From positions 10,964,482 to 11,028,481 of the forward strand of contig CM055897.1 of assembly GCA_029582155.1 (NCBI GenBank): a stretch of 64,000 nucleotides of DNA, written 5' to 3'. The position numbers and the translations under genes are program-made. Positions within the stretch are counted from its first letter, which is position 1. Every line of letters starts with the position of its first letter. This document shows positions 3,656-48,615 of the stretch, one piece after another. The notes under the pieces are model-generated. The model was given only the letters and a program-made list of their open reading frames with translations. It did not search any database and was not told the DNA's origin. This DNA is from Panopea generosa (Eukaryota; Mollusca; Bivalvia; Adapedonta; Hiatellidae).

Positions 3656-3659
3656 TTTC

Positions 3660-4285
3660 TTCTCAGCATATACAGCGTTTTATTTCGGAATCTATGTTGG
3701 CAGAAACATTTTCATAAATAAGCTGTATGCCTCCCAAACCTTTAGTTGGGCGTTTAGTTTGATAAAAACATTGACAGATTATACTTTATCTTTGTAAAGC
3801 TTGCCGGTAGTTGTTCTGCCCACTTTGCAAGACATTTGTAGATCAGGACCACTAGAATTGAAGAAAATGGTATACAAAACCTTTTAACTCTTATTGTCTG
3901 TCCTCTTTGATATGACCGACCTAGTCTGACTTTTACCAAGCCATTGTTTGTTATTAATGTGCCACTAGTGCTAAAAAAAGTTTCATTTCCAGTGAGCATA
4001 TCATAAATTTTCCCAGGATTATATTTTTTTTATATTTTTCAGAATTTTTTTAGCACACACTAAATGCTTTGACTTTTAATCAGGTGTCAGCAAGTGGGGA
4101 ATTCATCATAGTCAGTTAGTCAGAATATTAAGTACGGTGCCATCTGAAATGCCTAGACTATTAGCTATCTGTGAAAAGGTATACCGTCCGTCTTCTTCTA
4201 CCATAGCCCCAACAGCATCAATGTTATCTTTTTTTTTTGCTGTAACAACAGGCCTACCTGGGTGGCTATGCTGACTTGCAGGCTA
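3660..4285 (-). mobile_element. Mariner-like (Tc1/mariner) transposase pseudogene
   Basis: On the minus strand, conserved mariner transposase segments appear in the correct order. A GRP linker and second helix-turn-helix (core IANSLGISDGTVLNIL) lies at about 4258-4115. IPHLLTPD, the equivalent of the mariner WVPHLL motif, lies at 4102-4079, followed by KHLVCAKKIL. TGNETFF, the equivalent of TGDETW around the first catalytic aspartate, lies near 3993-3973. YTIFFNSSGPDLQ is at 3875-3838 and TTGKLYKDKV at about 3815-3785. QLIYENVSAN, corresponding to LLHDNAxAH around the second aspartate, is near 3720-3695. The first D is now N, the second is E, and the conserved H is N. Several in-frame stops, at least two frame changes and a small deletion before IPHLL are visible. 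The third catalytic region was not found. Tc1/mariner transposases perform cut-and-paste transposition; this copy cannot encode a working enzyme. Confidence 0.9.
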
Positions 4286-4289
4286 TGCC

Positions 4290-4490
4290 CCTCGTATTAG
4301 TATGTATTTATATCATCTCATAAATGGTTTGTTTACTGAGTAAATAATCTTCAACATATTGTAATAAGAAATACAACACGTTGCATTTAAAAAACTCATT
4401 TTGGCATATATAAACATGACTAATGGGTAACGTTATGAAGTCATATCATATCAATTGGTCTTTAAAAATGAATATTTACAACCATGTAAA
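4290..4490. other. Spacer between mariner relic and 23-bp array
   Basis: AT-rich spacer with no ORF or motif of note. The 5' end of the mariner-like element (first helix-turn-helix and terminal repeat) would be expected here, but I cannot recognise it. Confidence 0.4.
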
Positions 4491-5560
4491 CCTATTACAT
4501 GTATTACTCGACTGTTATAACATATATTTCCCGATTGCTATTACATGTATTACCCGAGTGTTAAAACATATATTTCCCGACTGTTATTAAATATATTACC
4601 CGACTGTTATTACATGTATTACCTGACCGTTATTACATATATTACCTGACTGTTATTACATGTATTACCCGACTGTTATTACATGTATTACCCGACTGTT
4701 ATTACATGTATTACCCGACTGTTATTACATATATTACCCGGCTGATATTACATATATTTCCCGATTGTTATTACATGTATTACTCGACTGTTATTACATA
4801 TATTACCCGACAGTTATTACATATATTACCCGACATTCATACATTTCCCGATTGTTATAACATGTATTACCCGACTGTTATAACATGTATAACCCGACTG
4901 TTATAACACGTATTACCAATTGTTATTACATATATTACCCGACTGTTATTACACGTATTACCCGACGGTTATTACATATATTACCCGACTGTTATTACAC
5001 GTATTACCCGACTGTTATAACATATTTTACCCGACTGTTATAACATGTATATCCCGACTGTTATAACACGTATAACCCGACTGTAATTACATATATTTCC
5101 CGACTGTTATAACATGTATTACCCGACTATTATTACATATATTATCCGACTGTTATTACACGTATTACCCGACTGTTATAACATATATTACCCGACTGTT
5201 ATAACACGTATTACCCGACTGTTATTACACGTATTACCCGACTGTTATAACATATATTATCCGACTGTTATTACACATATTACCCGACTGTCCCTACATA
5301 TATTACCCGACTGTTATTACATGTATTACCCGACTGTTATTACACATATTGCCCTACTGTTATTACATATATTACCCGATTGTTATTTCATATATTACCC
5401 GACTGTTATTGCACGTATTACCCGACTGTTATTACACGTATTGCCCGACTGTTATTACATATATTACCCGATTATAATTATATGTATTACCCGTCTGTTG
5501 TTAAACGTATTACCCAACTGATATTACATGTTTGATTCGACTGTTATTACAGAATATATT
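4490..5560. repeat. 23-bp minisatellite, array 1 (about 46 units)
   Basis: Tandem 23-bp units with core TTACCCGACTGTTATTACA followed by TGTA, CGTA or TATA. Consecutive copies at 4681 and 4704 give the period directly. Variation is concentrated in the last bases of the unit and in TTATT versus TTATAA. The ORFs at 4660-4906 and 5114-5521 are translations of the repeat (YYPTVITYITRLL type) and not genes. The same unit forms a second array from about 7715. Confidence 0.95.
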
Positions 5561-5589
5561 ATTCAACCATTATTACATGCATGGCTAAA

Positions 5590-5790
5590 CTATTATTTTA
5601 CATTGATTGTGACTTGTGACTTAGACAAATAGCTCTGGAAGTCTTCCTGGGTAGAACCATACTAAGTATATTCGGATATAGTGTCTTGCTCAAGGATACT
5701 ACACATAGCCGTGTAGGAGGATCGAACCCGCGACTCCGCCATCAACCGGTCATGTGTCCGATGCTCTTGATCACGTACCCCACCATTATA
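5590..5790 (-). mobile_element. tRNA-derived SINE, family A, copy 1
   Basis: Read on the minus strand, the right part is tRNA-like, with a B-box GGGTTCGATCC near 5726-5736. It is followed by a body containing CCTTGAGCAAGACACTAT and CCCAGGAAGACTTCC. The same body occurs at about 6800-6975 and 7515-7715, all on the minus strand. The combination of a polymerase III B-box and a shared non-coding body is diagnostic of a SINE. The A-box is eroded (around ATCAAGAGCATC). The copy abuts the right end of the first 23-bp minisatellite array. Family assignment is by comparison within this window only. Confidence 0.75.
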
Positions 5791-6795
5791 ATAATGGTTA
5801 TCCGAGTATGATTACATGTTATTACGCATGCATGGTTGGTTATTCATGTTGATAAACAATAAACGTTAACTTAGGCAACACATGCATGATCTTTATCATT
5901 CCATGTTCTTTATTATTTTACAAAATCAAACATGTTTATATACGAATAATACGGCAAATGATCAGAAGATCATATTAGAAGCCTGAATATACTCATACCC
6001 ACATTTATGAATATACAATGACATAGAAATAGCACAAACGCATCATAAAAGCACACCCTAAAAGCGATATTGCGATACCTTGTGTTTTTTGTTTTTTTAC
6101 TAATTTAACGGTGTTTTGATTGATAAAATTCAATAACAAAGCCCATTGGCAATAGCTAATGAATTTTTATAAGGTCAATCGAAATTGAGAGTATGTTGTC
6201 AAGTAAGCTAATTGGTTGATGAATAGATAACTAACCAAATAAGGATATTCGTCACAACACCTACAGGCATACGTTATCCGATATGTGGAACAAACATGGG
6301 TGTTCAAACAGATACGGTGTCTAATCATGACATATGTAACTGATATGCAGTAATACTACTGATTGTATATTCGATTTTACGCGACGGGGGTTAACACAAC
6401 ATTTATCTATTATAAATGAACGCGAGTACTTATATCAATTGTTGCACGATTGACATTTGTAACTGTCAACGGTGCCCAGTTGCCATTTATGACTTTCAAT
6501 TGATTTTCTATCTAACAAACATTAATAATGCATAGTTTAATAGTCATATATGGACTCACAGGACAGAATGTATCCCTACGTGTTGAATCCTGCCCTTTTA
6601 ATTCAATTGTATCGTCATTTTGTGTTTACAAAGCTGTCCTGCACATTCCCAGGGGGCGGAAGTTGTTCGTACTACGTGGTTTTATTTGACAAAGTTTTAT
6701 TTTTTGTCCAAACAATTTGATGTGTACGTTATGCAAACATGTATTAGACGCATTCAAGCACAATACAGTTTATTCCCCCTGTGAGAAATGCTTTA
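5791..6795. other. Intergenic sequence, nothing recognised
   Basis: About 1 kb of AT-rich sequence with scattered short ORFs, none with a motif, long length or coding-like composition. I see no strong inverted or direct repeats. Confidence 0.5.
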
Positions 6796-6799
6796 ATCG

Positions 6800-6980
6800 A
6801 ATTTGTAATGATATTTAGACAAATATTCCAGGGTAGAACAATTGTTATGCATATACAGATAAAGTGTCTTTTTCTTGGACATAACACATGGCAGTGGCGG
6901 GGCGTGGTACCCAATGCCTACCATTTCTGGGTTCAGCGCTCTACCACAAACGCATGCATTACTCATGCTATAAACATTGT
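6800..6980 (-). mobile_element. tRNA-derived SINE, family A, copy 2 (diverged)
   Basis: The minus strand carries a diverged version of the body seen at 5590-5790 and 7515-7715. It includes AAGACACTTTATCTGTATATG and a CTACCCTGGAATATTTGTC segment. The tRNA-like head, around GTGGTAGAGCGCTGAACC, is decayed and its B-box is no longer clear. The 95-codon ORF at 6781-7068 on the other strand crosses this element and is not a gene. Confidence 0.6.
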
Positions 6981-7206
6981 CAAGATAACATTTAACAGGG
7001 CTGCGTTCACTTCGGTTAAACGTTTGCTAACGTTATCTAACATATTTTTCTTGGCGCTGGTTACTTAAATTTATATGAGATTTGCAGAGGAATCCGGTAA
7101 ATTATTTTTAAAGATAGTATTAACTTTCCAATACAATCTTATGGGGTACAAAAAGTTTCATTGTTTGAAATATTAACGATAAAGAAATATGTATGCTTAC
7201 CTTTAT

Positions 7207-7220
7207 TTATGTAAACTGAT
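7207..7220. repeat. Target-site duplication, left copy
   Basis: TTATGTAAACTGAT here is identical to 7490-7503. The two 14-mers bracket the complete SINE exactly, as expected for insertion by target-primed reverse transcription. Confidence 0.9.
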
Positions 7221-7489
7221 TGATTGATTGACTGAATATTTAGCGTCATTTGTATGCCATCGAGGGCTAACAGACGATCAGTTAACCTAACCACTGTTTC
7301 ATAGTGTTAACCAGTACTCGAGCACACCCCGTCTCCGTAAGTAACTGATAACTTTCCCACTTGAATCAGTGGTGAGACACAATGTCGTATATCAATCATC
7401 ACGGAGACTGTTGCCGGGCGGGGGATTCGAACCCACGACCCCTGGATTGATAGTCAGACGCGTAACCGACTGAGCTAATCGGGCCCGGC
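7221..7489 (-). mobile_element. Complete tRNA-derived SINE, family B
   Basis: On the minus strand the element begins exactly at position 1 of a tRNA-like head (GCCGGGC at 7489-7483). It has a perfect A-box TAGCTCAGTCGG and B-box GGTTCGAATCC, and the head's 5' GCCGGGC pairs with a later GCCCGGC. A body of about 190 bp follows (with GTGTGCTCGAGTACTGGTTAA and GTTAGCCCTCGATGGCAT), ending in a TCAA/TCAATCA-type tail. A perfect 14-bp duplication flanks it. D-stem and anticodon-stem pairing is degraded, so this is a SINE head rather than a functional tRNA gene. Tails of the same family occur at 12233-12377, 41258-41398 and 57218-57345. Of the family copies here this is the only full-length one, and the perfect duplication suggests a comparatively recent insertion. 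Family SINEs are transcribed by polymerase III and mobilised by LINE proteins in trans. Confidence 0.92.
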
Positions 7490-7503
7490 TTATGTAAACT
7501 GAT
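7490..7503. repeat. Target-site duplication, right copy
   Basis: Second perfect copy of TTATGTAAACTGAT, immediately next to the 5' end of the tRNA-like head of the family B SINE. Confidence 0.9.
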
Positions 7504-7514
7504 GTGTGAAACAA

Positions 7515-7715
7515 TTTATTACAACTTAGAAAAATCATGCTTGATGTCTTCCTGAGTAGAATAGACATAGACATCCTGGGTAGGGTCAGCACTTAACATA
7601 TGCAGATAAAGTGTTTGTTCAAACACCACACATAAACGTAGCGAACGATCGAACCCACGACCCTTCCATCCTAGGTCCGATATTCTGTCACGGGACAGAT
7701 GCTTCACAATTGGTA
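7515..7715 (-). mobile_element. tRNA-derived SINE, family A, copy 3
   Basis: Minus-strand SINE with B-box GTGGGTTCGATCG near 7645-7660. Its body contains ACACTTTATCTGCATATG and ACTCAGGAAGACATC and matches copies at 5590-5790 and 6800-6980. Its 3' tail lies next to the family B SINE insertion and its head abuts the start of the second 23-bp minisatellite array. The overlapping ORFs at 7519-7826 are fortuitous. Confidence 0.75.
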
Positions 7716-8540
7716 GTTATTATTACATACATTAACCGACTGTTATTAGATGTATGGTCCGACTATTATTGCAAGTATTACCCGACTAGTATTACATATA
7801 TTACTCGACTGTTATTACACGTATGACTGGACTGTTATTAAATATATTACCCGACTGGTATTACACATATTATCCGACTATTATTAGACGTGACGTATAA
7901 CACGACTGATATTACATGTATTATCCGACTGTTATTACCTGTATTACCCGACTGTTATTACATGTATTATCTGACTATTAATACATGTATTACCCGACTA
8001 GTATTACATGTATTACCCGACTAGTATTACATATATTACTTGACTGTTATTAAATATATTACCCGACTGTTATTACACGTATTACCCGACTGTTATTACA
8101 CGTATTACCCGACATATACTACATATATTACCCGACTGTTATTACATGTAATACTCGACTGTTATTTCCTGTATTACCCGAAGGTTATAACATATATTAC
8201 CCGACTGTCATTACATGTAATACCCTACTGTTATTACATGTATTATCCAACTGTTATTACATGTATTACCCGATTGATATAACATGCATTACTCGACTGC
8301 CATTACATGTAATACCCTACTGTTATGACATGTATTACCCGACTGTTATTACATGTATTACTCGATTGATATAACATGTGTTACTCGACTGTCATTACAT
8401 GTAATACCCTTCTGTTATTACATGTATTACCCGACTGTTATTTCATGTTTTACCCGACTGTTATTTCATGTAATACCCGACTACTATTACATGTATTACC
8501 CGACTGTCATTACATGTATCACCCGACTGATATTACACGT
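7715..8540. repeat. 23-bp minisatellite, array 2 (about 35 units)
   Basis: Same 23-bp unit as the array at 4490-5560 (core TTACCCGACTGTTATTACA), in the same orientation. It is enriched for variants with CTAGTATT, TACTCGAC and ATACCCTACTG. The array starts directly at the head of a family A SINE. ORFs at 8040-8282 and 8353-8610 only translate the repeat. The two arrays probably come from one locus split or duplicated by rearrangement. Confidence 0.93.
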
Positions 8541-8760
8541 ATTTAACATATTACCTTACTATAATTACAATTACATAGCACTTTGCACAACCAGTACCCG
8601 ACCATTATAAAAATGCTAGCAATACTATTACTGAGTTTTGGCAATACAATAAATACCATAAAAGCGTTCAGGTAATATCGGTACAGTGTGCTGGCAATAC
8701 AATCACACAGTTCTGGAAATACCATAACGTCGTGTTTACAACATTACAAGAATGCTGACA
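8541..8760. repeat. Degenerate tandem-like sequence after the 23-bp array
   Basis: Loosely repeated phrases such as GGCAATACAATAAATACC and GGCAATACAATCACACAG follow the array. Spacing is irregular, so this is either a decayed array edge or chance low-complexity sequence. Confidence 0.35.
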
Positions 8761-9375
8761 ATATATTATTATAGAGCGCTGCAATACAAAAACACCCCAG
8801 AAAATTGGAAATGTCACAAAACAGCGCTTGCAATGTTGTTTAATATTCTAAAGATGCTATTAGAATGTCTCAAACTAGATTTTAATGCAATAACATAAAG
8901 TCAAACATTAGATCACTCTATCGTTCTATAAGACAAAACTCTGAAACGAAAATAAAGTGTATACTAATGTTTGAAATGTGCCAGTTTAAATGCATGTGCA
9001 CGTCAACTGAACAACATTTCGCAACTCAAATATTAATTTTTAATTCCGCTGTTTCTTGATTATTCATTCCATTTGGACGAAACATGCATTTTACAGCTAC
9101 ATGTTGATCATAAGGCAATCGATTAAATGTTGGTTTTGAAGGCATGTATAATCTGTCTAACTTTAAAAGGCCCCCGGGGAAAAGGAGGTAAATTAATGCT
9201 GTATTGTTTTACACCTAAAACTTATCGTGTAAAGCATGTGCTTATTTGCCTTTATAAATTATTTTATATTTTAGATGTCGGGGGGAAGAAAGAGGTTCGG
9301 TGCACCCTTTTACAAAGTTCAAGTTCCCCTTTGACACCTTTATAACCGACCGTTCAAAGGCGGTGGGATCTGTTG
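8761..9375. other. Intergenic sequence, nothing recognised
   Basis: Unique AT-rich sequence. The ORF at 9127-9345 shows no motif, and I see no RNA gene or clear repeat. Confidence 0.45.
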
Positions 9376-9377
9376 TC

Positions 9378-9379
<2 letters not shown>

Positions 9380-9445
<66 letters not shown>

Positions 9446-9485
9446 GTGCGTAATTGTGTGCGTAAGTGCGTGTGCGCATGTGTAC
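9380..9485. repeat. Microsatellite (TC)n(TA)n with GT-rich flank
   Basis: An uninterrupted (TC)n run of about 50 bp passes into (TA)n and then a GTGCG/TGTGCG-rich tract. The ORF crossing it is low-complexity SLSLSL sequence and not a gene. Confidence 0.95.
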
Positions 9486-9894
9486 GTGCGTACATGTATT
9501 CTAATGTATCATTATTATGCATTATGCTTCCGACCATTCCGCCATTAATAGTTAAGTATTAAATGTTTTAATTAATAAACACAAATGAAATTGACAAAAT
9601 AAATGCAAAGCAATATATGATAGGCGATGTGACTTAACATCACAAAAACGTTAAAATGTGACCTTCTACACGATATTATATACGTTACACATACACTTAT
9701 ATATATACATTGACTGGACGTCGCAGGCTAAGTACCATGTCTTGTTAGTCGCCGTATTTGAGTGGTCAGTTAGTCATTAATTAATTATTAACTTTCCTAA
9801 CACGTAATGTCCCGCAGACACCTATATGGAAGGGCATGCTTATATCTGGCTCACGTGTTCGATATTTTACACATTACAAATACAATCTAACTTG

Positions 9895-10100
9895 TATTAG
9901 CAGTCACCTCTGTTGAGCAACAAACTGTCTTGAGCAGATATATTTGCTATTTCCCATTTCTATGCTTTCAGAGCAAGTTAATCTTCATAAGGGACAACCT
10001 GTTTTAAAAGGCCATTTTTTTACTTCCATTGAGTGGCTGCTTAAGACAGATTTGAGTGTAACTTAAATTAGAGTTCCAATAAAACCGTGTCTATTATTTT
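9895..10100 (+). repeat. Dispersed repeat, family R1, copy 1
   Basis: Homologous to 19262-19480. Shared phrases include TATTTCCC followed by TATGCTTTCA and GAGCAA/CAGCAA, and TGGCTGCTTAAGACA (TTGCTGCTTAAGACA in the second copy) followed by TTTGA and TGTAAC. No coding potential is seen. The gapped similarity over about 200 bp indicates an old interspersed element of unknown class. Confidence 0.65.
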
Positions 10101-10850
10101 TTTCATTTTTGTTTCGTTCTGTACTCCCATATAATCATGGTATCTGATATCATACAATAAAGGATGAAAGCCAAGGGGCTATATTATAGCATATGAACTC
10201 AATAGTGGAAACTGATCAAAAGTGATGCAGCTTTTCACAACTTACTGCAACGTGTCTCAATTAAGATAATTGATTGAAGCTTGGCATTGACCTCGTGACG
10301 CCTGCCTTAAGTATATTGATATGTGTATATGATATGCTTTTATGTCAAATATTCCTTTCATTCAGCTGGCGAAAATTGGTTTGAACTACAAACGACTGAC
10401 AACAGTGGACGTGAGAGTATTGCGTATGCCATTAACCAGTACATACATAATCTCTCAACTTTGTTCCAAACCAAGTCTTTTAGTTTTTTCTTGATTGTGT
10501 TGTATGCATCCAGGAGATATTTTATCTGTTTATTTTCATTCATTAAAGTTACTTATTGCCATTTTTTTCATTAAAATTTATCAAAGAGAGACAGTTCGTC
10601 GCCATAAGGGAAGTCGACATAAAGGGGATAATTGCACTTCTTATTGGCTCTTCGCGGTGGAGCAAACATAAACAATGTTTTGAAACGAGTATTTACATGT
10701 ACATCTAGTCAGACATCTAGTCAGATAATAAAAACACAATATATCTGAACATCTCTTGACTGTCTTTCCCATCGTTGGAGTATCCATGTTCAACATAATG
10801 TCACATGACGGAATTCAAGTGACTAACACTGTTGCATGTAGTCAGGACGA
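10101..10850. other. Intergenic sequence, nothing recognised
   Basis: AT-rich unique sequence. ORFs on both strands at 10323-10574 are mutual shadows without recognisable domains. Confidence 0.45.
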
Positions 10851-10854
10851 AATG

Positions 10855-11220
10855 CTGATTCCGAAACTAAGTTTGTCCATTATTTCGATGTTTCGGATAC
10901 TTAATTTGTATATTATTTCAATATTTCGGATACTAGATTTGTTCATTATTTCAATATTTCGGAAACTAAATTTGTTCATTATTTCAATATTTCGGATACT
11001 AAATTTGTTCATTTTTTTCAGTATTTCGGATACTAAATTTATGTATTATTCCAATGTTTCGGATACTAAATCTGTGTATTTTTCAATGTTTTGGATACTA
11101 AATTTGTGTATTATTTCAATGTTTCGGAGACTAAATTTGTGTATTATTTCAATGTTTCGGATACTTAATCTGTGTATTATTTCAATGTTTTAGATACTAA
11201 ATTTGTTCATTATATATATG
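10855..11220. repeat. 33-bp minisatellite (about 11 units)
   Basis: Tandem 33-bp units with core TTTCGGATACTAAATTTG, followed by T(G/T)T(A/C)ATTATTTCAAT. TTTCGGA at 10891 and 10924 gives the period. Because 33 is divisible by 3, one frame stays open for about 110 codons as an 11-residue repeat (MFRILNLCIIS type) in the 145-codon ORF at 10756-11193. The hydrophobic periodic peptide reflects the DNA repeat. A detached half-unit recurs at about 11291-11323. Confidence 0.93.
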
Positions 11221-11329
11221 GTTCCGTCAGAGATACCTGACGTCCTGGAGATGCATACACAGAAATGATCCCTAAAAGTATGCTCTTTTATATTTCGGAT
11301 ACTAAATTTGTTCATTATTTGATTTCACC

Positions 11330-12230
11330 AAGTTTATATCTGTAAAATAGACGGAATGATAGAAAATGTATATACTCGTTATTATATATGTTTAGTTTTA
11401 AACATATTTATCTTAATTTGATAAAGAAAAATGTTATTACAACTTACAAAAATAACACTTGTACACTATGTTTGTTACCCAAATAACATTTTGCATATTA
11501 ATTGTGATATTTTCTTGGCAAATTTTAAACATAATAAATTTATATAGATATATATTTTATATAAGTCTCATCATAATATACCATTTACAGTTTAACATTA
11601 CAGAAAAACATATACCATGTCATTCTATAAGAATTGTAAGAGACTATTACATATGACATTGTCAAGATCTCTGTGACAGAGTACAACAATAGTCAAACCA
11701 AACTGAGTAAGAATCGTATATTCGCTATTACTCTTGACTCTGTTATACCCCAAGTTGGTTATATAGCGTAGTCTAAAAGAGTTCTAAACTAAAATAATGT
11801 CCATATGTAAGCGGATAGTACACACTTTTATTTAGAGTCGGTACAGTACAAATATATAAAAACGATAGCTATTGACCGATCTTTAAGAAACCAGTCAATG
11901 ATGCGGTATTTCTATTAAAACTTTTATTATCATTAACCATAAAGAATTTCCTGAATAGTTTTACCCGAAGTACAAGCTTCTTAAGAAGATGGTTTAAGTA
12001 AGATGATGTCATACTGACGGCTGTTTCACAAATTAGTAACAGATGACAAAGCAACACTAATATCAATAAATACACCAAGATGTGATGAGAGAGCTTCAGA
12101 TCGATCAGAAAATGTGCATCTAGACATTGTAGCAACATGAAATATTAACGGGGTCTGCAGCGTAATTGTCCAATTATTAGTGACCAATGTTTTATTAATG
12201 TCTGCACTTATCTAAGTGTCTTCCTCAAGC
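11330..12230. other. Intergenic sequence, nothing recognised
   Basis: Strongly AT-rich. Short ORFs at 11459-11656 (+) and 11869-12138 (-) have no motif I recognise. No tRNA or inverted repeat was noticed. Confidence 0.45.
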
Positions 12231-12232
12231 GT

Positions 12233-12377
12233 AAAAGTTAACGGTTACTTGCGGAGATTACTGTGCTCGAGTGCTGGTTCACCGTCTTGGATACCAGGAA
12301 AGAGTGATAAGGTTAACTGATCGTCAATAAGCCCTCGGTGGCATAAAAATACCCTTAATTTAAGCAAACAAACAAAG
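12233..12377 (+). mobile_element. SINE family B, 5'-truncated copy
   Basis: Matches the body and tail of the complete SINE at 7221-7489. Shared elements are AAAGTTA followed by GGTTACTTGCGGAGA, CTGTGCTCGAGTGCTGGTT, GGTTAACTGATCGTC and GCCCTCGGTGGCATAAAAAT. It ends in an (AAAC)-type tail, AAGCAAACAAACAAA. The tRNA-like head is missing. Confidence 0.85.
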
Positions 12378-13080
12378 CTTTCATATAACATAATTAAAGG
12401 TAAACTGTTTGATGATATACAGAACGAAATAATAGGAGGACTTGTATTCAGTAAAAAGATATAAATTTAAAACAGATAAATTGAGATTAAAAAAGTGAAT
12501 TAGTTGCTGCCCGCCCCATTAAAGTTTACAAATACTATTAGAAGCAGGATGGCATTGGCACATAATATGAAATAAACTAACAACCAAAGGAAATAAATAA
12601 AACAGATCAAATAGAATGAAATACAAAGCCATAGCAGAGGTATACAAAAAAAAAAAGACATTATCTGTATCGTTCCAGACGAGTGCAGTGCATGGCTATG
12701 TTAGGTATGCCACGATAATGAATTGGTCAGACCAGCATTTGGCTAATTTTCTATTGTATGATGGAACGATGAAAGACGCTCTCGCAATCAAAAATATATT
12801 GCATTTTTCAAACATCTAGTTAACGTCTCAACAACAAGTCAATTAATACCTGGCATATACAGAGTCAATACTAGACGAAAGGATGTCTGGGTAACAGAAT
12901 ACAACAAAGAAAGGAATGGAGCAGTTTTATTATGTCCGTCCAAACTTGTCTGAATGAACAGTTGAATTCTGGTCATTTCAAAATGATTCACAAAAAAGCA
13001 TTGTACTGAAAAATAAAGACGAAATGTCACTATTGATGAATGACGAGAGCTAACTAAGACCATTTGCCCAAATATAACTG
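12378..13080. other. Intergenic sequence, nothing recognised
   Basis: AT-rich sequence. Overlapping short ORFs at 12616-12819 and 12839-13114 lack motifs. I see nothing supportable. Confidence 0.45.
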
Positions 13081-13094
13081 TTAGAAGCATTTTT

Positions 13095-13350
13095 CGTCTG
13101 TAACGTGCACACATTCAAATGCTACGTGAACATAGTTTACTGTTACCCGCACACATTTAATTGTTACGTGAACATATTCAAGTGTTACGTCCACAAATTT
13201 CAATGTTACGTGAACATATTTAACTGTTACGTCCACACATTTAATTGTTACGTGCACTTCAAATGTTACGTGCACATATTTAACTGTAACGTCCACAAAT
13301 TTAAATGTTACGTGCACAAATTTAACTGTTACATGCACACTTTTAACTAC
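13095..13350. repeat. 21-bp minisatellite (about 12 units)
   Basis: Tandem 21-bp units, core GTTACGTGCACATATTTAA with GTGAAC or GTCCAC variants; one unit is shortened to 18 bp. As 21 and 18 are both divisible by 3, both strands stay open (plus CYVNIFN type, minus VHVTVKF type), producing 92- and 85-codon ORFs that are artefacts of the array. Confidence 0.92.
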
Positions 13351-13578
13351 CTACTAGTATTGCGTGCACAAATTTATCTGTGACCCTTTTATGCCCATCG
13401 TTGTCATTATACTTATACAAACATATACGTATATAGTGCATATATTTTATTACACAATGAATAACAGTCTTTGTCAGTTATGCGAGATTAAAATCATCAT
13501 TGACGATACATGTATATTATCTTTACCAACTGTATTCTTTAGTCAATAAACCTAAGATAACTTTTGCCACAGGAAATC

Positions 13579-13672
13579 CTACATTCCAAGTACACGCGGG
13601 TCTTTTAGACCATGCGCGCAATCTGCACAAACATTTGAGACCAGGACTTCGTCTACATTCCAAGTACACGCG
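13579..13672. repeat. 20-bp perfect direct repeat
   Basis: CTACATTCCAAGTACACGCG occurs at 13579-13598 and 13653-13672, 74 bp apart. It could be a small local duplication. Confidence 0.8.
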
Positions 13673-13699
13673 TACCATTATATGTGTTTAAAATCTGCT

Positions 13700-14120
13700 G
13701 AGACACTTCCATAAAATCAAAGAACAATCAAAGTGTATTAATGAGCTGAAAATATTTATTCAGCAACACGCATATAGGACATTCGCCCTATGTCAATAAT
13801 TTAAAGTTTATCACATCAAATATGCAAATTATATTTAATATCAACACACTATTGCAAGTCAAGATAATATTGGAATACACAAGGGTGTGTAAGCATGCCT
13901 CCGTCTGTCTTACTACAGCTGAAGCCTTCGATTGTAACAAAGAAACCGAACCAACTCTGTATTGAGTTGTGGATATCTGCCGATATCGCAGCACTGTAAG
14001 GGAATGTTGTGCAAACTTGTTGAAAGCTTTTTAAAAAAAGCATCTGATGGTAATGTTATATAAAGATGCTGGTAATTAGTATAAAGGTTTGTACGTAACA
14101 TTCTTGTTTTATGGTGTTGC
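13700..14120. other. Intergenic sequence, nothing recognised
   Basis: Short overlapping minus-strand ORFs at 13788-14101 show no motif and differ only by frame. Confidence 0.4.
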
Positions 14121-14129
14121 GATTAACTA

Positions 14130-17100
14130 TTTTAACTATCTTTATTTCACCCCCATATCTTTTGCACTATCTATCTCCATTCAGCCCACATACCTATCAC
14201 ACTATCTTTAATCTGTCCCATACCTATTTATCTTTAAACAGCCCCGCCGTTCATACCATACCTATCGCGCCATCTTTCTCCATTCAGCCCACATACCTAT
14301 CACACTATCTTTAATCTGTCCCATACCTATTTATCTTTAAACAGCCCCGCCGTCCATACCATACCTATCGCGCCATCTTTCTTCATTCAGCCCACATACC
14401 TATCACACTATCTTTATAATGTCCCATACCTATTTATCTTTAAACAGCCCCGCCGTCCATACCATACCTATCGCGCCATCTTTCTTCATTCAGCCCACAT
14501 ACCTATCACACTATCTTTATAATGTCCCATACCTATTTATCTTTAAACAGCCCCGCCGTCCATACCATACCTATCGCGCCATCTTTCTTCATTCAGCCCA
14601 CATACCTATTGTACCATCTTTCTTCATTCCGCCCCCATACATATCGCGACATCTTTCTGCATCCAGCCTCAACACCTATCGCGCCATCTTTCTTCATTCC
14701 GCCCCATACGTATCGCACCATCTTAATTCATTCTGCCCGATAAAAATTGTGCAATCTTTCTTCCTTCAGCATTCATACCTATCGCACTTTCGTTTTTTAT
14801 TCCGCCCCAAAATCTATGGCGTCATATTTTACATACCGCGCTATCTATCTTCATTCTGCCCCCATACATACCGCACTATTTATCGTCATTCCTCCCCCAT
14901 ACATACCGCACTTTTTATCTTCATTCCGCCCCCATACATACCGTACTATTTATCTTCATTCAGCCCCCATATATACCGCATTATTTATCTTCATTCCGCC
15001 CCCATACATACCGCACTTTTTATCTTCATTCTGCCCTCATACATACCGCACTATTTATTTTTATTCCGCCCCCATACATACCGCACTATTTATCTTCATT
15101 CCGCCCCCATACATACCGCACTTTTTATCGTCATTCCGCCCCCATACATACCGCACTATTTATGTTCATTCCACCCCCATACATACCGCACTATTTATGT
15201 TCATTTCGTCACCATACATACCGCACTATATATCTTCATTCCGCCCCCATACATACCGCACTATTTATCTACATTCTGTCCCCATACATACCGCACTTTT
15301 TATCGTCATTCCGCCCCCATACATACCGCACTATTTATGTTCATTCCAACCCCATACATACCGCACTATTTATGTTCATTCCGCCCCCATACATACCGCA
15401 TTATTTATCTTCATTCCGCCCCCATACATACTGCACTTTTTATGTTCATTTCGTCCCCATACATACCGCGCTATCTATCTTCAATCCGCCCTCATACATA
15501 CTGCACTATTTATCTTCATTTCGCCCCAATACATACCGCGCTATCTAGCTTCATTCCACCCCCATACATACCGTACTATTTATCTTCATTCTGCCCCATA
15601 CATACCGCATTATCTATCTTAATTCCGCCCCCATACATACCGGACTATTTATCTTCATTCCGCATCCATACATACCGCACTATCTAGCTTCATTCCACCC
15701 CATACATACCGTACTATCTATCTTCATTCTGCCCCATACATACCGCACTATTTATCTTCATTCCGTCCCCACATATACCGCACTATTTATCTTCATTCCG
15801 CCCCATACATAACGCGTTATCTATCTTCATTCCACCCCATACATACCGTACTATCTATCTTCATTCTGCCCCATACATACCGCACTATTTATCTTCATTC
15901 CGTCCCCACATATACCGCACTATTTATCTTCATTCCGCCCCATACATACCGCGTTATCTATCTTCATTCCGCCCCCATACATACCGCGCTATCTACCTTC
16001 ATTCAGCCCCATACATACCGCACTATTTATCTTCATTCCGCCCCCATACATACCGCACTTTTTATCTTCATTCCTCCCCCGTACATACCGCACTTTTTAT
16101 CTTCATTCCGCCCACATACATACCGCACTATCTATCTTCATTCAGCCCCCGTATATACCGCGCTATCTACCTTCATTCCGCCCCCATACATACTGCACTA
16201 TTTACCTTCATTCAGCCCCCATACTTACCGCACTATCTACCTTCATTCCGCCCCCATACATACCGCACTATCTATCTTCATTCAGCCCCAATACATACCG
16301 CGCTATCTACCTTTATTCAGCCCCCATACATACCGCACTGTCTGCCTTCATTCAGCCCCCATACATACCGCGCTATCTACCTTCATTCCACCGCCATACG
16401 TACCGTGCTATCTATCTTCATTCAGCCCCCATACATACTGCGCTATCTATCTTAACTCAGCCCCCATACATACCGCGCTATCTACTTTCATTCAGCCCCC
16501 ATACATACCGCGCTATCTACCTTCATTCCGCCCCCATACATACCGCACTATCTACCTTCATTCAACTCCCATACATATCGCACTATCTGTCTGCATTCCC
16601 CTATAACTATTGCACTTTCTATCTTCGTTCTCGTATACCTATTGCACTATCTACTTTCATTCAGCCCCATACATACCGCGCTATCTACCTTCATTTCGCC
16701 CCCATACATACAGCGCTACGTACCTGGATTCCCCTATAACTATCGCACTTTCTATCTTCGTTCTCGTATACCTATCGCACTGTCTGTCTTCATTACGCCA
16801 CACCCCCATACCTATTGCACTGTCAATCTTCATTCTCCTATACCTATCGCACTGTCTTTCTTCATTCCGCCTCCATGCCTATCGCACTGTTTTATATTTT
16901 GTCCGCCCAAATATCTATACCTATTTATCTTTAGCCAGCCCCCCGTCCTTTCCTATCGCACTATTTATCTTTGATCCGTCCCATACCTATCGCACTATCT
17001 ATCTTCATTCCACTCCTGCACCTAATTCACTATTTATCTTTATTCCGCCCATTTTGTATTTCCACTCCTATTGCTATTGCCCTATCTTTCTTAATTCCGC

Positions 17101-17270
17101 CCCCATATCTATCACACATGTTGCGTTCATGATAACACAACAAGAAATATCAACTTGATAACACATGGAGAAATATCAACTTGATACGTGTCTATTGTAT
17201 TTTCGCTCCTATACATATTGCCCCATCTTTCTTCATTCCGCCCGCATATTTATTACACTATATATTTATA
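14130..17270. repeat. 35-bp pyrimidine-rich satellite (about 85-90 units)
   Basis: Tandem 35-bp units with core CCCCCATACATACCGCAC, followed by TATTTATCTTCATTC. Consecutive copies at 14898 and 14933 give the period. The strand is rich in C, T and A and poor in G, and is far more GC-rich than its surroundings. The most regular part is about 14840-16580; units degrade toward 17270 (variants with CCTATCGCAC). With a 35-bp period, three units equal 35 codons and few stops arise, so all three plus frames stay open for long stretches (422, 291, 128 and 182 codons). Each frame reads the same 35-residue periodic peptide, HTYRTIYLHSAPIHTALFIF type. Confidence 0.95.
14160..14640. repeat. 103-bp higher-order repeat within the 35-bp satellite
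   Basis: CCCACATACC recurs at 14185, 14288, 14391, 14494 and 14597 with an exact spacing of 103 bp. Each period holds three diverged ~35-bp monomers, including a segment with AAACAGCCCCGCCGT. Copies are nearly identical, so this is a recently homogenised higher-order unit at the left edge of the array. Confidence 0.92.
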
Positions 17271-17349
17271 TTCCACCCCTATCTTTCGTTTGTTCAAGTT
17301 GACTAGTCTCTGTACTTTATCAAGTTGGAATTGCTGTATATGTTATCAT

Positions 17350-17615
17350 GTTCTTGATATAGCATTGCCACAATGACTAAAGATAAGAACTTAGATCAAA
17401 TATCTTGATATAGCATTGCCACAATTACTAAAGGTAAGAACTTAGATCAAATATCTTGATATAGCATTGCCGAATTGACTAAAGGTAAGAACTTAGATCA
17501 AATATCTTAATAAAGCATTGCCACAATGACTTAAGGTAAGAACTTAGATCAAATATCTTGATATAGCATTGCCACAATGACTAAAGGTAAGAACTTAGAT
17601 CAAATATCTTAATAA
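17350..17615. repeat. 51-bp tandem repeat (5 units)
   Basis: About five nearly identical 51-bp copies with core AGCATTGCCACAATGACT, then AAAGGTAAGAACTTAGATCA. Units start near 17356, 17407, 17458, 17509 and 17560. Low divergence suggests a recent expansion. Confidence 0.93.
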
Positions 17616-17739
17616 TTGCATTCTAGCACGAATCTTCTAATTAATTCATAGTTATATGAAACACATTTTTATTTGAATTGTTATTCATATATTATAATGG
17701 CTACTTACTGCTTATACTTTTTAATAAAAGCCAGCACCA

Positions 17740-19013
17740 TATAGGAAGACCGAAGGTTCGATTTCCGGCCGAGTTTTGAAAATCTTGAAAAATGACACTA
17801 GAAGTTTCCTTGCTTGGTGCTTATCATCTAGAGAATAGTTCTGGGTCTGGTCGGCCCGGTGTCAGTATAATGTGACTGGGTGTGGCGTCATACAATGTGT
17901 CTGCGGTCGGCCCGGTGTCAGTATAATGTAACTGGGTGTGGCATCATACCATGTGTCTGCGGTCGGCCCGGTGTCAGTATAATGTGACTGAGTGTGACAT
18001 CATACCATGTGCCTGCAGTGAGCCCGGTGTCAGTATAATGTGACTGGGTGTGGCATCATACCATGTGTCTGCGGTCGGCCCGGTGTCAGTATAATGTGAC
18101 TGGGTGTGGCATCATACCATGTGTCTGCGGTCGGCCGGGTGTCAGTATAATGTGACTGGGTGTGGCATCATACCATGTGTCTGCCGTCAGCCCGGTGTCA
18201 GTATAATGTGACTTGGTATGGCATCATAACATATGTCTGCAGTCTGCCCGGTGTCAGTATAATGCGACTTGGTGTGGCATCACACCATGTGTCTGCAGTC
18301 AGCCCGATGTCAGTATAATGTAATGGGTGTGACATCATACCATGTGTCTGCAGTCAGCCCGCTGTCAGTATAATATGACTGGGTGTGACATCATACCATG
18401 TGTCTGCAGTCTGCCCGGTTTCAGTATAATGTGACTGGGTGTGGCATCATACCTTGTGTCTGCGGTAGGCCCGGTGTCAGTATAATGTGACTGGGTGTGG
18501 CATCATACCATGTGACTGCAGTCAGCCCGGTGTCAGTATAATGTGACTGGGTGTGACATCATACCATATGTCTGCAGTCAGCCCGGTGTCAGTATAATGT
18601 GACTGGGTGTGGCATCATACCATGCGTCTGCGGTAAGCCCGGTGTCAGTATAATGTGACTGGGTGTGGCATCATACCATGTGTATGTGGTCGGCCCGATG
18701 TCAGTTCTATACGACTGGGTGTGGCATCATACCATGCGGCTGCAGTCGGCCCGGTGTCAGTATAATGTGACTGGTTTGTGGCATAATACCATGCGTCTGC
18801 GGTCGGCCCGGTATCAGTATAATGTGACTGGTTTGTGGCATCATACCATGTGTCTGCGGTCGGCCCGGTGTCGGTATAATGTGACTGGGTGTGGCATCAT
18901 ACCTTGCGTCTGCGGCAGAATACTGCAGTGTGACAGCTCTTAGAATACTGTCTCAAGTAGAAACCGTCGTAATATAGCTGAAAATTATCTAAAACACCAA
19001 ACAAACAAGTAAC
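17740..19013 (+). mobile_element. SINE family C with an amplified internal segment
   Basis: The left edge has a polymerase III B-box-like GGTTCGATTTCC at 17755-17766. The right edge (about 18912-19013) has the SINE 3' region, including ACTGTCTCAAGTAGAAACCGT and a tail ACACCAAACAAACAAG. Between them, the part that is single-copy in an ordinary member is repeated about 19 times. A single-copy relative at 47915-48130 has the same order: tRNA-like head, then a TGTCATTACAATGTGACTTGG segment. The order head, repeated core, tail argues that the satellite arose inside one SINE insertion. The A-box is not evident. From memory, elements with this core and tail are widespread in bivalve genomes. Confidence 0.8.
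17850..18918. repeat. 56-bp tandem array derived from the SINE core (about 19 units)
   Basis: Head-to-tail 56-bp units, core CGGTGTCAGTATAATGTGAC, then TGGGTGTGGCATCATACCAT. GTCGG at 17906 and 17962 gives the period. Units differ by a few substitutions (GCGGTCGG, GCAGTCAG, GCAGTCTG variants). The ORF at 18665-18943 is read-through of the array. Confidence 0.95.
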
Positions 19014-19261
19014 CATATAACATCAGAGTCAAAAGCTGCCTCATAGTGGCGCCCAGATTACACTTTACTGTCATTTGAGTAAATTCTTCAGAAAATACTT
19101 CATTAGTTATCTTGCTGTAACAATAAACAGTTTTACTAAACACAAACTATGCCTCTCAGCCTCTTACGAAATCAAACAGTGAGTACTTTTCAGCAAGCGA
19201 ACTCAAGAGCGCTTTATATAAGCTTTAAGCTTTCTTAGCAATTGAGCTTAAATATGCAATT

Positions 19262-19480
19262 AAACTTGTGCAAGCAGTTTCCTCTTTTAAGCAGCCTATT
19301 TGATATTTCCCATGGCTATGCTTTCACAGCAAATAAACATGTATTAAGCAAACACCTGTCTTAAAGAGCAATATTTGTTCTCTGCCTCAACTTGCTGCTT
19401 AAGACATGTTTGACTGTAACAGAATAAATTAAAAAATAAAAATAAAGGTTAAATCTGTTTTACCGAACACTTTTATTTAA
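19262..19480 (+). repeat. Dispersed repeat, family R1, copy 2
   Basis: Aligns with 9895-10100: TATTTCCC, TATGCTTTCA, then CTGCTTAAGACA and TTTGACTGTAAC in the same order and strand. A weaker relative with CACTTAAGCAGTCTTAAGCAG lies around 42030-42140. It is noncoding and its class is unknown. Confidence 0.65.
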
Positions 19481-19659
19481 AGTATGTTCTGCTTATTTTG
19501 ACATATTATCTGCTACAATTCTTATAAATTCGTAAATCATAATTTAAAAACGGTAAATTTATTGTGCGAAGACAACCTTTAGAACAATTTTTTCATTAAA
19601 TACCTTTTTTAAAATACATGGATATAAGTTAAAACCTTAATAATATTCAAACCTACTAA

Positions 19660-19806
19660 AAGTCTCGGCTTGCATGACGTCACTAGTTTAGCACTTCTAT
19701 TGAAATACCAGTCTGCCCAAATATGATTGCATGACGTCACTACTTTAGCCCTTTTGTTGAAATACCAGCCTACATAATCACGCTTGCATGACGTCACTAC
19801 TTTAGA
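19660..19806. repeat. 57-bp tandem triplet carrying TGACGTCA
   Basis: Three copies of a 57-bp unit (GCATGACGTCACTACTTTAG, then TTGAAATACCAG). The perfect 8-bp palindrome TGACGTCA sits at 19675, 19732 and 19789, exactly 57 bp apart. The minus-strand ORF at 19609-19827 is a translation of the repeat. Confidence 0.9.
19675..19796. promoter_or_regulatory. Three CRE-type TGACGTCA sites (candidate)
   Basis: TGACGTCA is the consensus cAMP response element bound by CREB/ATF bZIP proteins. The three perfect copies come from the tandem repeat, so the spacing is not independent evidence of function. A fourth perfect site lies at 20517-20524 and a fifth at 35832-35839. No promoter or gene is evident next to them. 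Confidence 0.3.
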
Positions 19807-20489
19807 AATTGTATTGGTATCGAACATACAATACTCAACAGATCAATTGATTGGCTAAATGCTGTTTACTCCACAAAGTTGGTTTAATTTCAACGTTTAA
19901 AAGCGAGTTTCACTAAGACCGAAACTAAAATTGCGAGTTAAATTAAAATACGATGTCGTGACTACATTCATTTAGCTGATCCAGGAAAACTACAACTAAT
20001 ATTTCAAGCTCTATCGAACAGAAGGTTGCAAAAAATCGAAGATTTATAATTATGAAATAAGGTATTAGAGTACTCGTGCATTCTGTTGTTTATCGTCACT
20101 TTAATACATCCCCATATTAGCTGGGTATTATATTGTAATCAATAGCCGATGTGAAAGTGTTCATTCACAGGTAAGAGAAGTGACGATTTTCAACTCAGTG
20201 ATTTCTCATTAAACCGAATAGCATCACAAAGGTCGAACATATCAACTCAATTGAACTGTACTGTGATATGCAGCTATGCACCGGATTGCACTATAGTGTG
20301 ATGCATCCGTAGTTATATAACAATGGTGTCTGTTTCAGACAGCGGATTTATAGTTATGCCTCGTGAAAATGCAATGAAAAATACTCGTCGCATGGTACCC
20401 AATCAGACTACAATATACGATATTTTTAAATGTAAGCCCATAGCGACACGTTCTTGAGTGTATGATTTTAATGAGATTACATGGTACTC

Positions 20490-30919: not shown

Positions 30920-31663
30920 CTAGATACCGTCTATGTGTGAATTTCTCAATGTGATTGCATAATTTATAAACATTGCTAAATTTCGTACAGTATTTTCATT
31001 TTTACTAGACATTAATATTTTAAACTTGCTCAAGGACGGGGATTCAAAATATTTCTTTGGCAGATATTCTAAGCGTAGCACTCTATATAATGGACATATA
31101 TACTTGAAGAAAGTGGTATTCTGTTTCAATTAGTTAATCACAGAATATGCAATAACGCATTTCTCTTAGAATATTCATTTGACGTCCTTTTTCAATCTTT
31201 AAAATATGAGAAGAAGTTCTAAATGTAACAATACTCTGTCTGAACTTAAGTATGTTAATATATTTTAAATATGGTTCGAACTGAAATTGCATTTAAACTC
31301 TCTATACAGTACTAACTTATTATTCTGTGAGCAATCAGCATGCCAGTTTTGAATACATTGGTCTTTAAGTCTATTTATATATTGTGCGACAAACAATTTA
31401 TGGTTAGCTACATTCTGCCTTTCCCAAACATACCAAAATCCATTGTTATACAAATTCACACGAACAGTAGACACCAAATTTTTGTGCCCTTGTTCGTCAA
31501 CGTATTTAAGCATATTATAACATTTTTTAACATATCTGGTATTTGGTAAACTCAATATTCTTAACCAAAAATTAAAACAACGTTTAGCAGCTACTATATG
31601 CATAGGATATCTCTCACAGTCCTCCATTACTGCGGCATTACAAGATCTAAATAGTGCATTCAT
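30920..31663 (-). pseudogene. LINE ORF2 C-terminal region, frame-broken
   Basis: The readable segment at 31663-31265 (132 codons, including KRCFNFWLRILSLPNTRYVK and KLVLYREFK) continues after a frame change as FRTSSHILKIEKGR, CIFC and ETEYHFLQV near 31230-31095. A second shift leads to CPLYRVLRLEYLPKKY and NTVRNLAMFINYA, ending at 30920. The pattern KL.Y..FK, FR.S.H.L.IE.GR, C.FC, E.HFL..C is characteristic of the end of many LINE ORF2 proteins and contains the CCHC-like cysteines. At least one in-frame stop (after CIFCD) disrupts it. Confidence 0.88.
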
Positions 31664-32830
31664 ATATCTTTTACATGCATAAATATGTACACGTTAAACG
31701 CAATATAGTTGTTCTAGACCCCACATTTCAGCACCATATATAAATACAGGACAACATTTTGTATCAAATATTTTAAAGAATGTTGAAGAAGGCATAGGTA
31801 GTAAATCATTCACACCTTTTAGAACAGATATTAAATCTCGTTTAGCTTTATTCGCCATATTTTTAGACATTTTATAAAGTGGTAGTTTTTAGCAAACCAA
31901 CATAGGAAAAAGCGTTTACTGTTTCTAATTGATGATTTCACGCCTAGCTAACTGGCCACTGTTTTTAAACACAACAATTTTTGTTTTTCCTACATTTAAA
32001 ACCAACAGGCAGTCCAAACAGTACTGATGGAGATAATTTAGTTGTTGCTGTAAACAGCGAACAATATCGGCAATTAATGCTACATCGTCAGCAAAAAGTA
32101 ATGAAAAGATTTCAGTGATCTCAGGACATACGTATATGTGTTAGCAACAGTTGCATTTAATTCATTTATAAAAATTGTAAATAATATAGGGCTTTACTTT
32201 CAACCTTGTGTAAGTCCAAGTGGACAATTCAAATACTTTGTAAAGGTTGATCATTCTTACTTTAGCTTTTACGGATCGATAAATACTTTTTATAAAATGA
32301 AATGGATGGCCTTTAATTCCAATTTGTTGTAACACTGTATACAATTTAGATCTGTTACCAGAGTCAAACTCTTTTTTAAAGTCTACGAAAGCCACATAAC
32401 AGGTTTATGTTTCTTATATAAATATGTGCTAATCAAGGAATACAAAACAAAGCCATTATCAACGGTCGAAAAGCCGGAACAAAAACCTGCCTACGACTCG
32501 GTTATTTTACCAAAAGCGTTAACAAAAAAGGTAACCCGCTTAGTCAAGATACTAATGTATAGTATACTAAAAATATATATAAGAGATATGCCTCTGTAAT
32601 TGTCTGGATCATTTATTTGCCCCTTTTATGTACGGGAACAATTATACATTTTGTCCATGAAGCTGGAAATTCTAAAGATATATAGATTCTATTAAACAGT
32701 TTCCGAATAAATGGTAACAAAATATTACTGCCATGAATAAAATGTTCTGCAACAAGATGACCACTTGCAAATTATTTTGGGTCGATACCCTTTACTGCAT
32801 CAACAATTTCGTCATCTGTGATGTCATTGT
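31664..32830 (-). pseudogene. LINE reverse transcriptase domain, disrupted
   Basis: On the minus strand, SWTKCIIVPVHKRGK and DNYRGISL lie near 32660-32584, VDFKKEFDSGNRSKLYTVL is at about 32389-32330, and the catalytic FADD is encoded at 32095-32084, followed by LNVGKTKIVVF near 32010-31980. Downstream, IKRDL-type and FIYGAEMWGLEQL sequence leads into the C-terminal region. The aspartates of FADD are present and the first catalytic motif retains VDF. The frame shifts several times and stops interrupt it, so no full-length enzyme can be made. Confidence 0.92.
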
Positions 32831-33437: not shown

Positions 33438-33450
33438 ATCAAATACCTAC

Positions 33451-47900: not shown

Positions 47901-47914
47901 CGTTCTATCGAAAC

Positions 47915-48130
47915 TGTGGTCTAGGGTTAAAGTGTCAATCTCGAACGCTGAAGGCCGTGTATTCGATCCTTAGCCGGGTCATACAAATGAAAAGTGCTTC
48001 AAGCATCATCGCTTAGTGCTCAGCAATTAAAGGATAATTCTAGGTGTGGTAGACTCGGTGTCATTACAATGTGACTTGGCGGGTTATTATACCATGTGCA
48101 ACGCTTAGAATATATAATTTAAATAGATAA
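47915..48130 (+). mobile_element. SINE family C, single-core copy
   Basis: tRNA-like head: A-box-like GTGGTCTAGGGTTAAAGTG near 47919 and B-box-like TATTCGATCC near 47960. Then AGTGCTTCAAGCATCATCGC, ATTCTAGGTGTGGTAGACTC and one copy of the core, GGTGTCATTACAATGTGACT. The core matches the 56-bp unit amplified at 17850-18918. It shows the ancestral arrangement, one core per element. Confidence 0.75.
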
Positions 48131-48250
48131 CCTCGTGATTCGATGCTTTATCAACCAACGGGATTGTCCTTGAAGGTGTGTTTAAATCAATGCCATTTTC
48201 CATTAAAGTACCTCAGCTCATATTACACGACGTTTTGAAAGAAGATCACG
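48131..48250 (+). repeat. Dispersed repeat, family R3, partial copy
   Basis: TCGTGATTCGATGCTTTATC at 48133 matches 48411 exactly, followed by shared TGTTTAAATCAATGCCATTT and CCTCAGCTCATATTACACGA. The offset is 278 bp. This is a partial tandem duplicate of the R3 element that follows. Confidence 0.85.
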
Positions 48251-48309: not shown

Positions 48310-48615
48310 TGTTATTGACAATAATTCAAAATCATTATGAACCTGTCATGAATCGTCCGATACTTATTAATAACGCCGTTTCATTTCTCAGAAAGATCGA
48401 ATCGATTGGCTCGTGATTCGATGCTTTATCAACCAACTACGATTGTTCTTGCAGGGGTGTTTAAATCAATGCCATTTTCAATTAAAATACCTCAGCTCAT
48501 ATTACACGACGTTTTTAGAGAGGTTTTGAGGAAAGTCCAATAAAGTTTGAATTATAGATTGATTAATTATTATTATCGTGATTAACAATTTAATGGAATT
48601 AGGATGTTAATAACT
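48310..48615 (+). repeat. Dispersed repeat, family R3, copy 2
   Basis: Full-length counterpart of 42415-42720, and its central part is duplicated at 48131-48250. No ORF or terminal inverted repeat is evident. Confidence 0.75.

What the first reader, a model, noticed from the sequence alone, without database searches (positions are those of the whole stretch)
17740..19013. A SINE whose core has expanded into a 19-unit 56-bp satellite
A tRNA-like B-box on the left and the SINE's 3' region and A-rich tail on the right bracket about 19 tandem copies of a 56-bp core. The copy at 47915-48130 has the same head-core order with a single core. This suggests capture of a satellite's birth: internal amplification of one retroelement copy. 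Seen directly: period, boundaries and the single-core relative. Inferred: direction of change.
Basis: partly seen in the sequence, partly recalled or inferred. Interest (0 to 1): 0.7.

Follow-up and report, generated by a model that had tools for sequence, protein, structure and literature searches.

The report
SINE core grown into minisatellite array
A short mobile DNA element has had its middle piece copied 19 times in a row inside one insertion; the same has happened to other copies of the element elsewhere in this genome, which makes the birth of tandem repeats unusually readable.

Summary
Window 17744-19011 is a 5'-truncated, tRNA-type SINE between two exact 8-bp repeats (17736-17743, 19012-19019). 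Its 56-bp core stands there 19 times (17849-18915). Head and tail belong to one SINE family, and the single-core relative near 47907-48131 is real.

Of 39 other copies found by the head alone, 37 have one core, 2 no detectable core, none several. Both core-bearing copies in 120 kb of random sequence are single-core. Yet an array query led to 31 further array loci; with the window they hold 36 blocks of 3 to 91 cores.

The arrays sit in SINE copies with dissimilar heads and have at least five clearly different units, so cores expanded repeatedly, most likely in place. This is a minisatellite-sized SINE-derived satellite, a kind known from reptiles (PMC10702118).

Two surprises: about 21% of the random sample is minisatellite, and the window array shares a rare unit variant with an array 1.8 Mb away whose SINE ends differ by about 34%, a hint that units can move between SINE copies.

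The parts
17736..17743 (+). 5' copy of the flanking direct repeat ACCATATA (target-site-like)
   Evidence: Exact 8-bp match to 19012-19019; the octamer occurs 5 times in the 64-kb window
17744..17848 (+). SINE head, 5'-truncated: lacks the A-box part, holds a B-box-like GGTTCGATTTC at 17755-17765
   Evidence: Aligns to the single-core consensus from position 43; score 111 against best of 200 shuffles 33
17849..18915 (+). Array of 19 copies of the 56-bp SINE core; all 19 have the rare pair GGGTGTGGCATC where the family consensus has GGGTGGGGTATC (small further changes in some)
   Evidence: TRF, BLAST, unit alignments
18914..19011 (+). SINE 3' region with an internal deletion and an A-rich end
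   Evidence: Aligned to the SINE consensus; score 83 against best of 200 shuffles 44
19012..19019 (+). 3' copy of the flanking direct repeat ACCATATA
47907..48131 (+). Single-core member of the same SINE family: head, one core, start of the tail, with 25 bases deleted across the core-tail border
   Evidence: BLAST to the window element; alignment to consensus; 39 other genome places match roughly its positions 17-199 at 75-76%

Best explanation
A 5'-truncated copy of a tRNA-type SINE was inserted here by retroposition (shown: head, tail, flanking repeat). Later its single core was duplicated in tandem, the new junction lying between a GG at the start of the core and a GG 56 bases on (read from the sequence). 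The pair then grew to 19 by unequal exchange or replication slippage (inferred). The same has happened independently in other copies of the SINE, with different units (shown by comparison of loci). No function is shown; it is most likely a neutral minisatellite in a genome where tandem arrays are very common (seen in a 120-kb random sample).
For: Single core is the usual state: 0 of 39 head-selected copies multi-core, 0 of 2 in the random sample. 16 of 36 multi-core blocks keep both SINE ends, 24 of 36 the head, 24 of 36 the tail; 6 tails could not be read because the fetched stretch ended. Fitted unit lengths are 34, 54, 55-56, 60 and 62; two extra loci have 78/92 and 60/73. Nearest heads of array copies lie 0.20-0.36 apart, as for single copies (the only closer heads are the two single-core copies of the L011/L013 duplicate). 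16 of 36 blocks have two or more majority variants, and of the 120 pairs that could share two only 2 do. Of 13 arrays tested, 9 are flanked by an exact repeat of at least 7 bp, against 11.8% of 372 mismatched pairs; among the 10 with both ends detected it is 7. Unit number changes: 14 and 9 cores in L011 and L013, whose downstream flanks are 97.1% alike over 1350 bases; 16 and 15 in two arrays of L027 with nearly identical tails.
Against: The commonest window unit is also found in L009, in a SINE copy with dissimilar ends, so growth in place may not be the whole story for this array. Short-match support is weak: frames 56 and 62 use 2-3 bases, and the region holds 20 direct repeats of 4-5 bases. 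Lengths 54/56 and 60/62 differ by 2 bases and might be indels of one junction. 0 of 7 single-core copies has a flanking repeat of 7 bp or more, so the flanking-repeat test is not clean. 8 of 36 blocks have no majority variant, and several variants recur singly in more than one array. Nearest-neighbour shares within an array range from 0.11 to 1.00. One assembly cannot show polymorphism. Arrays were found with an array query, so their share of all copies is only roughly known.
Confidence: 0.8

Rival explanations
1. Unit transfer: the array, or most of it, was copied into this SINE (or from it into L009) by gene conversion, unequal exchange or insertion of a DNA circle, with the core as the homologous landing site.
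For: An exact 24-mer with both rare substitutions occurs 19 times in the genome, 12 in L009 and 7 in the window array; a 20-mer 24 times: 13, 10 and 1 in a truncated single copy on C7. None of 45 single copies examined has the pair. Heads differ by 34.8%, tails by 33.9%, flanks do not match. Both lie on C4, same strand, 1.8 Mb apart.
Against: No other pair of unrelated blocks shares two variants, though only 16 of 36 blocks have two. A rare SINE lineage with both substitutions could have seeded both arrays; one single copy with the 20-mer exists.
Confidence: 0.13
2. Retroposition of a multi-core source: a SINE RNA that already held many cores was reverse-transcribed into each site.
For: Multi-core copies have flanking repeats at independent sites; L021 and L024 have fairly similar heads (distance 0.21).
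Against: Heads are otherwise dissimilar, units differ between arrays, and arrays reach 91 cores, about 5.5 kb.
Confidence: 0.05
3. Contraction: the multi-core form is ancestral and single-core copies are collapsed arrays.
For: None found beyond the fact that unit number changes.
Against: Single-core copies dominate, and arrays have several incompatible units, which one multi-core ancestor would not give.
Confidence: 0.02

Closest known systems
SINE-derived satellites (sSats) of squamate reptiles, PMC10702118 (abstract, passages, sections 5 and 19 seen)
   Same: Tandem units from part of a SINE, at many loci, more than one unit frame in a genome (three in Gekko japonicus), SINE sequence left at array edges; the 67-nt snake unit is of similar size.
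   Different: There most arrays keep one SINE end, and those with both are a minor variant; here 16 of 36 blocks keep both. Another SINE and genome, at least five clearly different units, and one pair of arrays that shares units without similar SINE ends.
PcH-sat of the limpet Patella caerulea, with a Nin-SINE segment, PMC11121367 (abstract and Discussion seen)
   Same: A satellite containing a SINE segment, in a mollusc.
   Different: 179-bp unit, about 10% of the genome, pericentromeric; the SINE segment lacks boxes A and B.
Minisatellites born inside Alu and B1 elements, reviewed in PMC6947457 and PMC9659126 (passages seen)
   Same: Local tandem growth inside a SINE; one review gives slippage or unequal crossing-over at short repeats of 5-10 bp as the start.
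   Different: The listed examples with a stated unit are 6-8 bp long, in mammals; here the same core of about 55-62 bp is the target again and again.

Membership tests
tRNA-derived SINE | tRNA-like head with A and B boxes | tested here: inconclusive
   Two relatives' heads align to Rfam tRNA through D arm, anticodon arm and T arm, E 0.13 (L018) and 0.061 (L015), below the gathering score. The window copy is truncated to the B-box part, no tRNA match; ARAGORN finds none in the window.
tRNA-derived SINE | Dispersed copies of like structure | tested here: met
   39 other places by the head, 39 by the relative, 3 model matches in 120 kb of random sequence
tRNA-derived SINE | Target-site duplication at this copy | tested here: met
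   Exact 8-bp repeat outside both ends; 2.7% of 372 mismatched pairs reach 8 bp
tRNA-derived SINE | 3' region shared with a partner LINE | not tested
   No LINE library searched
SINE-derived satellite (sSat) | Tandem unit is part of a SINE, with SINE sequence continuing at the edges | tested here: met
SINE-derived satellite (sSat) | Recurs at many loci of the genome | tested here: met
   31 other array loci fetched, two more
SINE-derived satellite (sSat) | Subtelomeric preference | not tested
   Positions were seen but not compared statistically with contig ends
Classical satellite DNA | Long arrays | tested here: not met
   1.07 kb and 19 units here; longest block seen 91 units, about 5.5 kb. 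By size these are minisatellites.
Classical satellite DNA | Heterochromatic location | not testable with these tools
   No chromatin or cytogenetic data

The most novel reading that the evidence does not exclude
A minisatellite born in one SINE copy can invade other SINE copies by homology with their single core, so that a dispersed SINE family acts as a set of landing sites through which a young satellite spreads along a chromosome; the window array and L009 are donor and recipient.
Probability: 0.25. Interest if true: 0.7.

Novelty: new member of a known kind. Interest (0 to 1): 0.45.

Why it matters
For many satellites the starting sequence is lost. Here it is known from abundant single-core copies (3 matches in 120 kb of random sequence would be very roughly 37,000 in the genome), so the junction, unit and early growth of each array can be read and independent births compared. 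The pair of arrays that share units without similar SINE ends makes the first step of satellite spread testable.

Tried and rejected
Pattern scans for core or tail letters in viral contigs and prokaryote genome contigs gave nothing, and a literature search for the letters found no paper. Chance was rejected on TRF and shuffle scores. A foreign satellite captured by a SINE was rejected because the core is part of single-core copies. Head and tail from unrelated elements was rejected. Short matches at junctions as strong proof of mechanism was rejected: the region has 20 direct repeats of 4-5 bases. Stepwise growth by neighbours is not visible in the window: adjacent units differ by 5.7, all pairs by 6.1. 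Placing the SINE in a named superfamily failed (MetaSINE paper not held).

I lowered the main confidence from 0.82 to 0.80 and raised unit transfer from 0.12 to 0.13.

Full report
WHAT IS THERE. The window lies in a 1.474-Gb genome held as 39 contigs, on C4 at 10964482-11028481. The 18 contigs among C1-C19 whose length was shown are 42-101 Mb. TRF reports 17849-18915, period 56, 19.0 copies, 89% matches; BLAST finds 19 cores. The flanks 17744-17848 and 18914-19011 are head and tail of one SINE: against a consensus from five single-core copies that exclude the window they score 111 and 83, the best of 200 shuffles being 33 and 44. With a later 46-copy consensus the head starts at position 43 and the tail runs to the A-rich end; most of those 46 copies were found through the window's own head, so that second alignment is less independent. 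ACCATATA stands immediately outside both ends. This is a 5'-truncated retroposed SINE with an array inside.

THE FAMILY. A full copy has a tRNA-like head, about 75 further bases, a core beginning GGTCGGCCCGGTGTCAGTATAATGTGAC and a tail ending in AAACACCATACAACAACAA. Two heads align to the Rfam tRNA model below its gathering score. The model match is by construction, as this copy helped to build the model.

ONE CORE IS THE RULE. A genome search with the window's head gave 39 other places (the best 40 of 1054 candidates were scored). I fetched all 39 as slices of about 400 bases. 37 have one core: 35 plainly, 2 where the script counted a second hit of at most 13 bases in the same core. 2 have no BLAST-detectable core. 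None has several. In 24 random stretches of 5 kb drawn from contigs C1-C19 there are three model matches: two with one core, one with the 3' part; a 26-base weak core match in L042 is not counted. Three in 120 kb would be about 37,000 in the genome, with a very wide error.

ARRAYS RECUR. A 201-base array query gave 193 matches. The rows listed (not all were) fall in 31 loci besides the window, and I fetched all 31. With the window they hold 36 blocks of three or more cores, 3 to 91 long: 16 with both SINE ends, 5 head only, 8 tail only, 3 head with the tail end cut, 3 without head and tail end cut, 1 with neither. Some blocks are parts of one interrupted array (L055, L063). The 6 single-core copies in the same loci have both ends, but five of them made the consensus and the sixth is a duplicate of one. 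Two more array loci came up in a pattern search and were fetched.

INDEPENDENT BIRTHS. Unit lengths fitted to the single-core consensus are 34, 54, 55-56, 60 and 62; fits are poor for L014 (0.65) and L028 (0.62). Two extra loci have TRF lengths 78/92 and 60/73; the first fitted poorly (0.54), the second was not fitted because that script failed. Since 54/56 and 60/62 could be two-base indels, I count five clearly different units. Nearest heads among array copies lie 0.20-0.36 apart; the only closer pair is the single-core copies of L011/L013. 28 of 36 blocks have at least one majority variant, 16 have two or more; of the 120 pairs that could share two, two do: L011/L013, a segmental duplicate, and window/L009. 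Single variants do recur in several arrays. Same-array nearest-neighbour shares run from 0.11 to 1.00, against 0.00-0.18 in shuffles. For flanking repeats I tested 13 arrays: L011, the 34-bp array of L014, L015, L021, L028 and the composite arrays were left out, and L053-L063 were not yet fetched. 9 of 13 have at least 7 bp and 5 of 13 at least 8 bp, against 11.8% and 2.7% of 372 mismatched pairs; L010, L016 and L026 among the 13 have no detected tail, and without them it is 7 and 4 of 10. The 7 single copies in the same test have none of 7 bp, which tells against leaning on it.

UNIT NUMBER MOVES. L011 and L013 have downstream flanks 97.1% alike over 1350 bases but 14 and 9 cores; just upstream of the array they differ. 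L027 holds arrays of 16 and 15 cores with tails 99-100% alike. L022 and L057 both have 22.

A SHARED UNIT WITHOUT A SIMILAR SINE. All 19 window units carry a T and a C where most single copies have G and T; so do 16 of 20 units of L009, 1.8 Mb away on the same contig and strand. None of 45 single copies has the pair. An exact 24-mer with both occurs 19 times in the genome, 12 in L009 and 7 in the window array. A 20-mer occurs 24 times: 13, 10 and one truncated single copy on C7. Yet heads differ by 34.8%, tails by 33.9%, and flanks do not match. Either a rare SINE lineage seeded both, or units were exchanged. The last unit of L009 lacks the pair, as expected if foreign units entered an older array; this step is inference.

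CONTEXT. 21.0% of the 120-kb random sample lies in tandem arrays of period 15-200 and at least 3 copies, in 14 of 24 stretches. With the window there are 35 non-overlapping arrays in 30 unit families, 25 found once; one family occurs in two loci. So tandem growth of local sequence seems common in this genome, and the SINE arrays are cases in which the seed is known. Flanks of the first 20 array loci are not richer in minisatellites (7.0%).

HOW IT WORKS, MOST LIKELY. Shown: insertion as a SINE, single core as the usual state, array inside the element, several units, changes in number between duplicates. Inferred: a first duplication by slippage or unequal exchange at a short match (GG to GG, 56 bases apart, here), then growth by unequal exchange. 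Matches of 5 (GTCTG, 54), 4 (GTGT, 60), 3 (GTG, 62) and 2 bases (GG, 56) can be read at the junctions of the consensus, but the region has 20 direct repeats of 4-5 bases, so this is only suggestive. No function is proposed.

WHAT IS KNOWN. SINE-derived satellites are described in squamate reptiles (PMC10702118: abstract, passages, sections 5 and 19) and one in a limpet (PMC11121367: abstract and Discussion). Reviews list minisatellites born in Alu and B1 (PMC9659126, PMC6947457: passages). Bivalve SINEs of Deu, V and Meta types are surveyed in PMC10294476 (passages). The MetaSINE paper is not held, so I could not place this SINE. In the listings of searches (titles and starts of abstracts of the rows shown) I saw no description of these arrays; search 30 for the letters found none.

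VERDICT. It is a new member of a known kind, made interesting by independent units, retained SINE ends and one hint of unit transfer.

Noticed in passing
L029-L052 (24 random 5-kb stretches) and window 1-20000: About 21% of the random sample is minisatellite, with 25 of 30 unit families (window included) found once; in the window such arrays fill 22-75% of each 4-kb bin up to 20 kb and none of 24-56 kb.
   Followed up: partly
L009 1932-3045 and window 17849-18915: Two arrays 1.8 Mb apart share a rare unit variant although their SINE ends differ by about 34% and flanks do not match.
   Followed up: partly
L017, L022, L023, L027, L057: A 62-bp core array preceded by a shared non-SINE sequence (LINE-3'-end-like by recall) occurs at five loci on C18, C19, C23 (twice) and C24, 0.2-2.3 Mb from contig starts, blocks of 15 to 91 units: a composite that has been duplicated.
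   Followed up: partly
window 4493-5551 and 7720-8543: Two separate 23-bp arrays with the same unit, 2.2 kb apart.
   Followed up: no
window 17352-17622: A 51-bp array of 5.3 copies lies just upstream of the SINE.
   Followed up: no
window 48132-48200 and about 48410-48479: A stretch beside the single-core SINE is repeated directly about 280 bases on, 91% alike.
   Followed up: no
window 31265-31693 and 33039-33446, minus strand: Two open frames of 142 and 135 codons that look like LINE protein fragments, from recall only; not searched.
   Followed up: no
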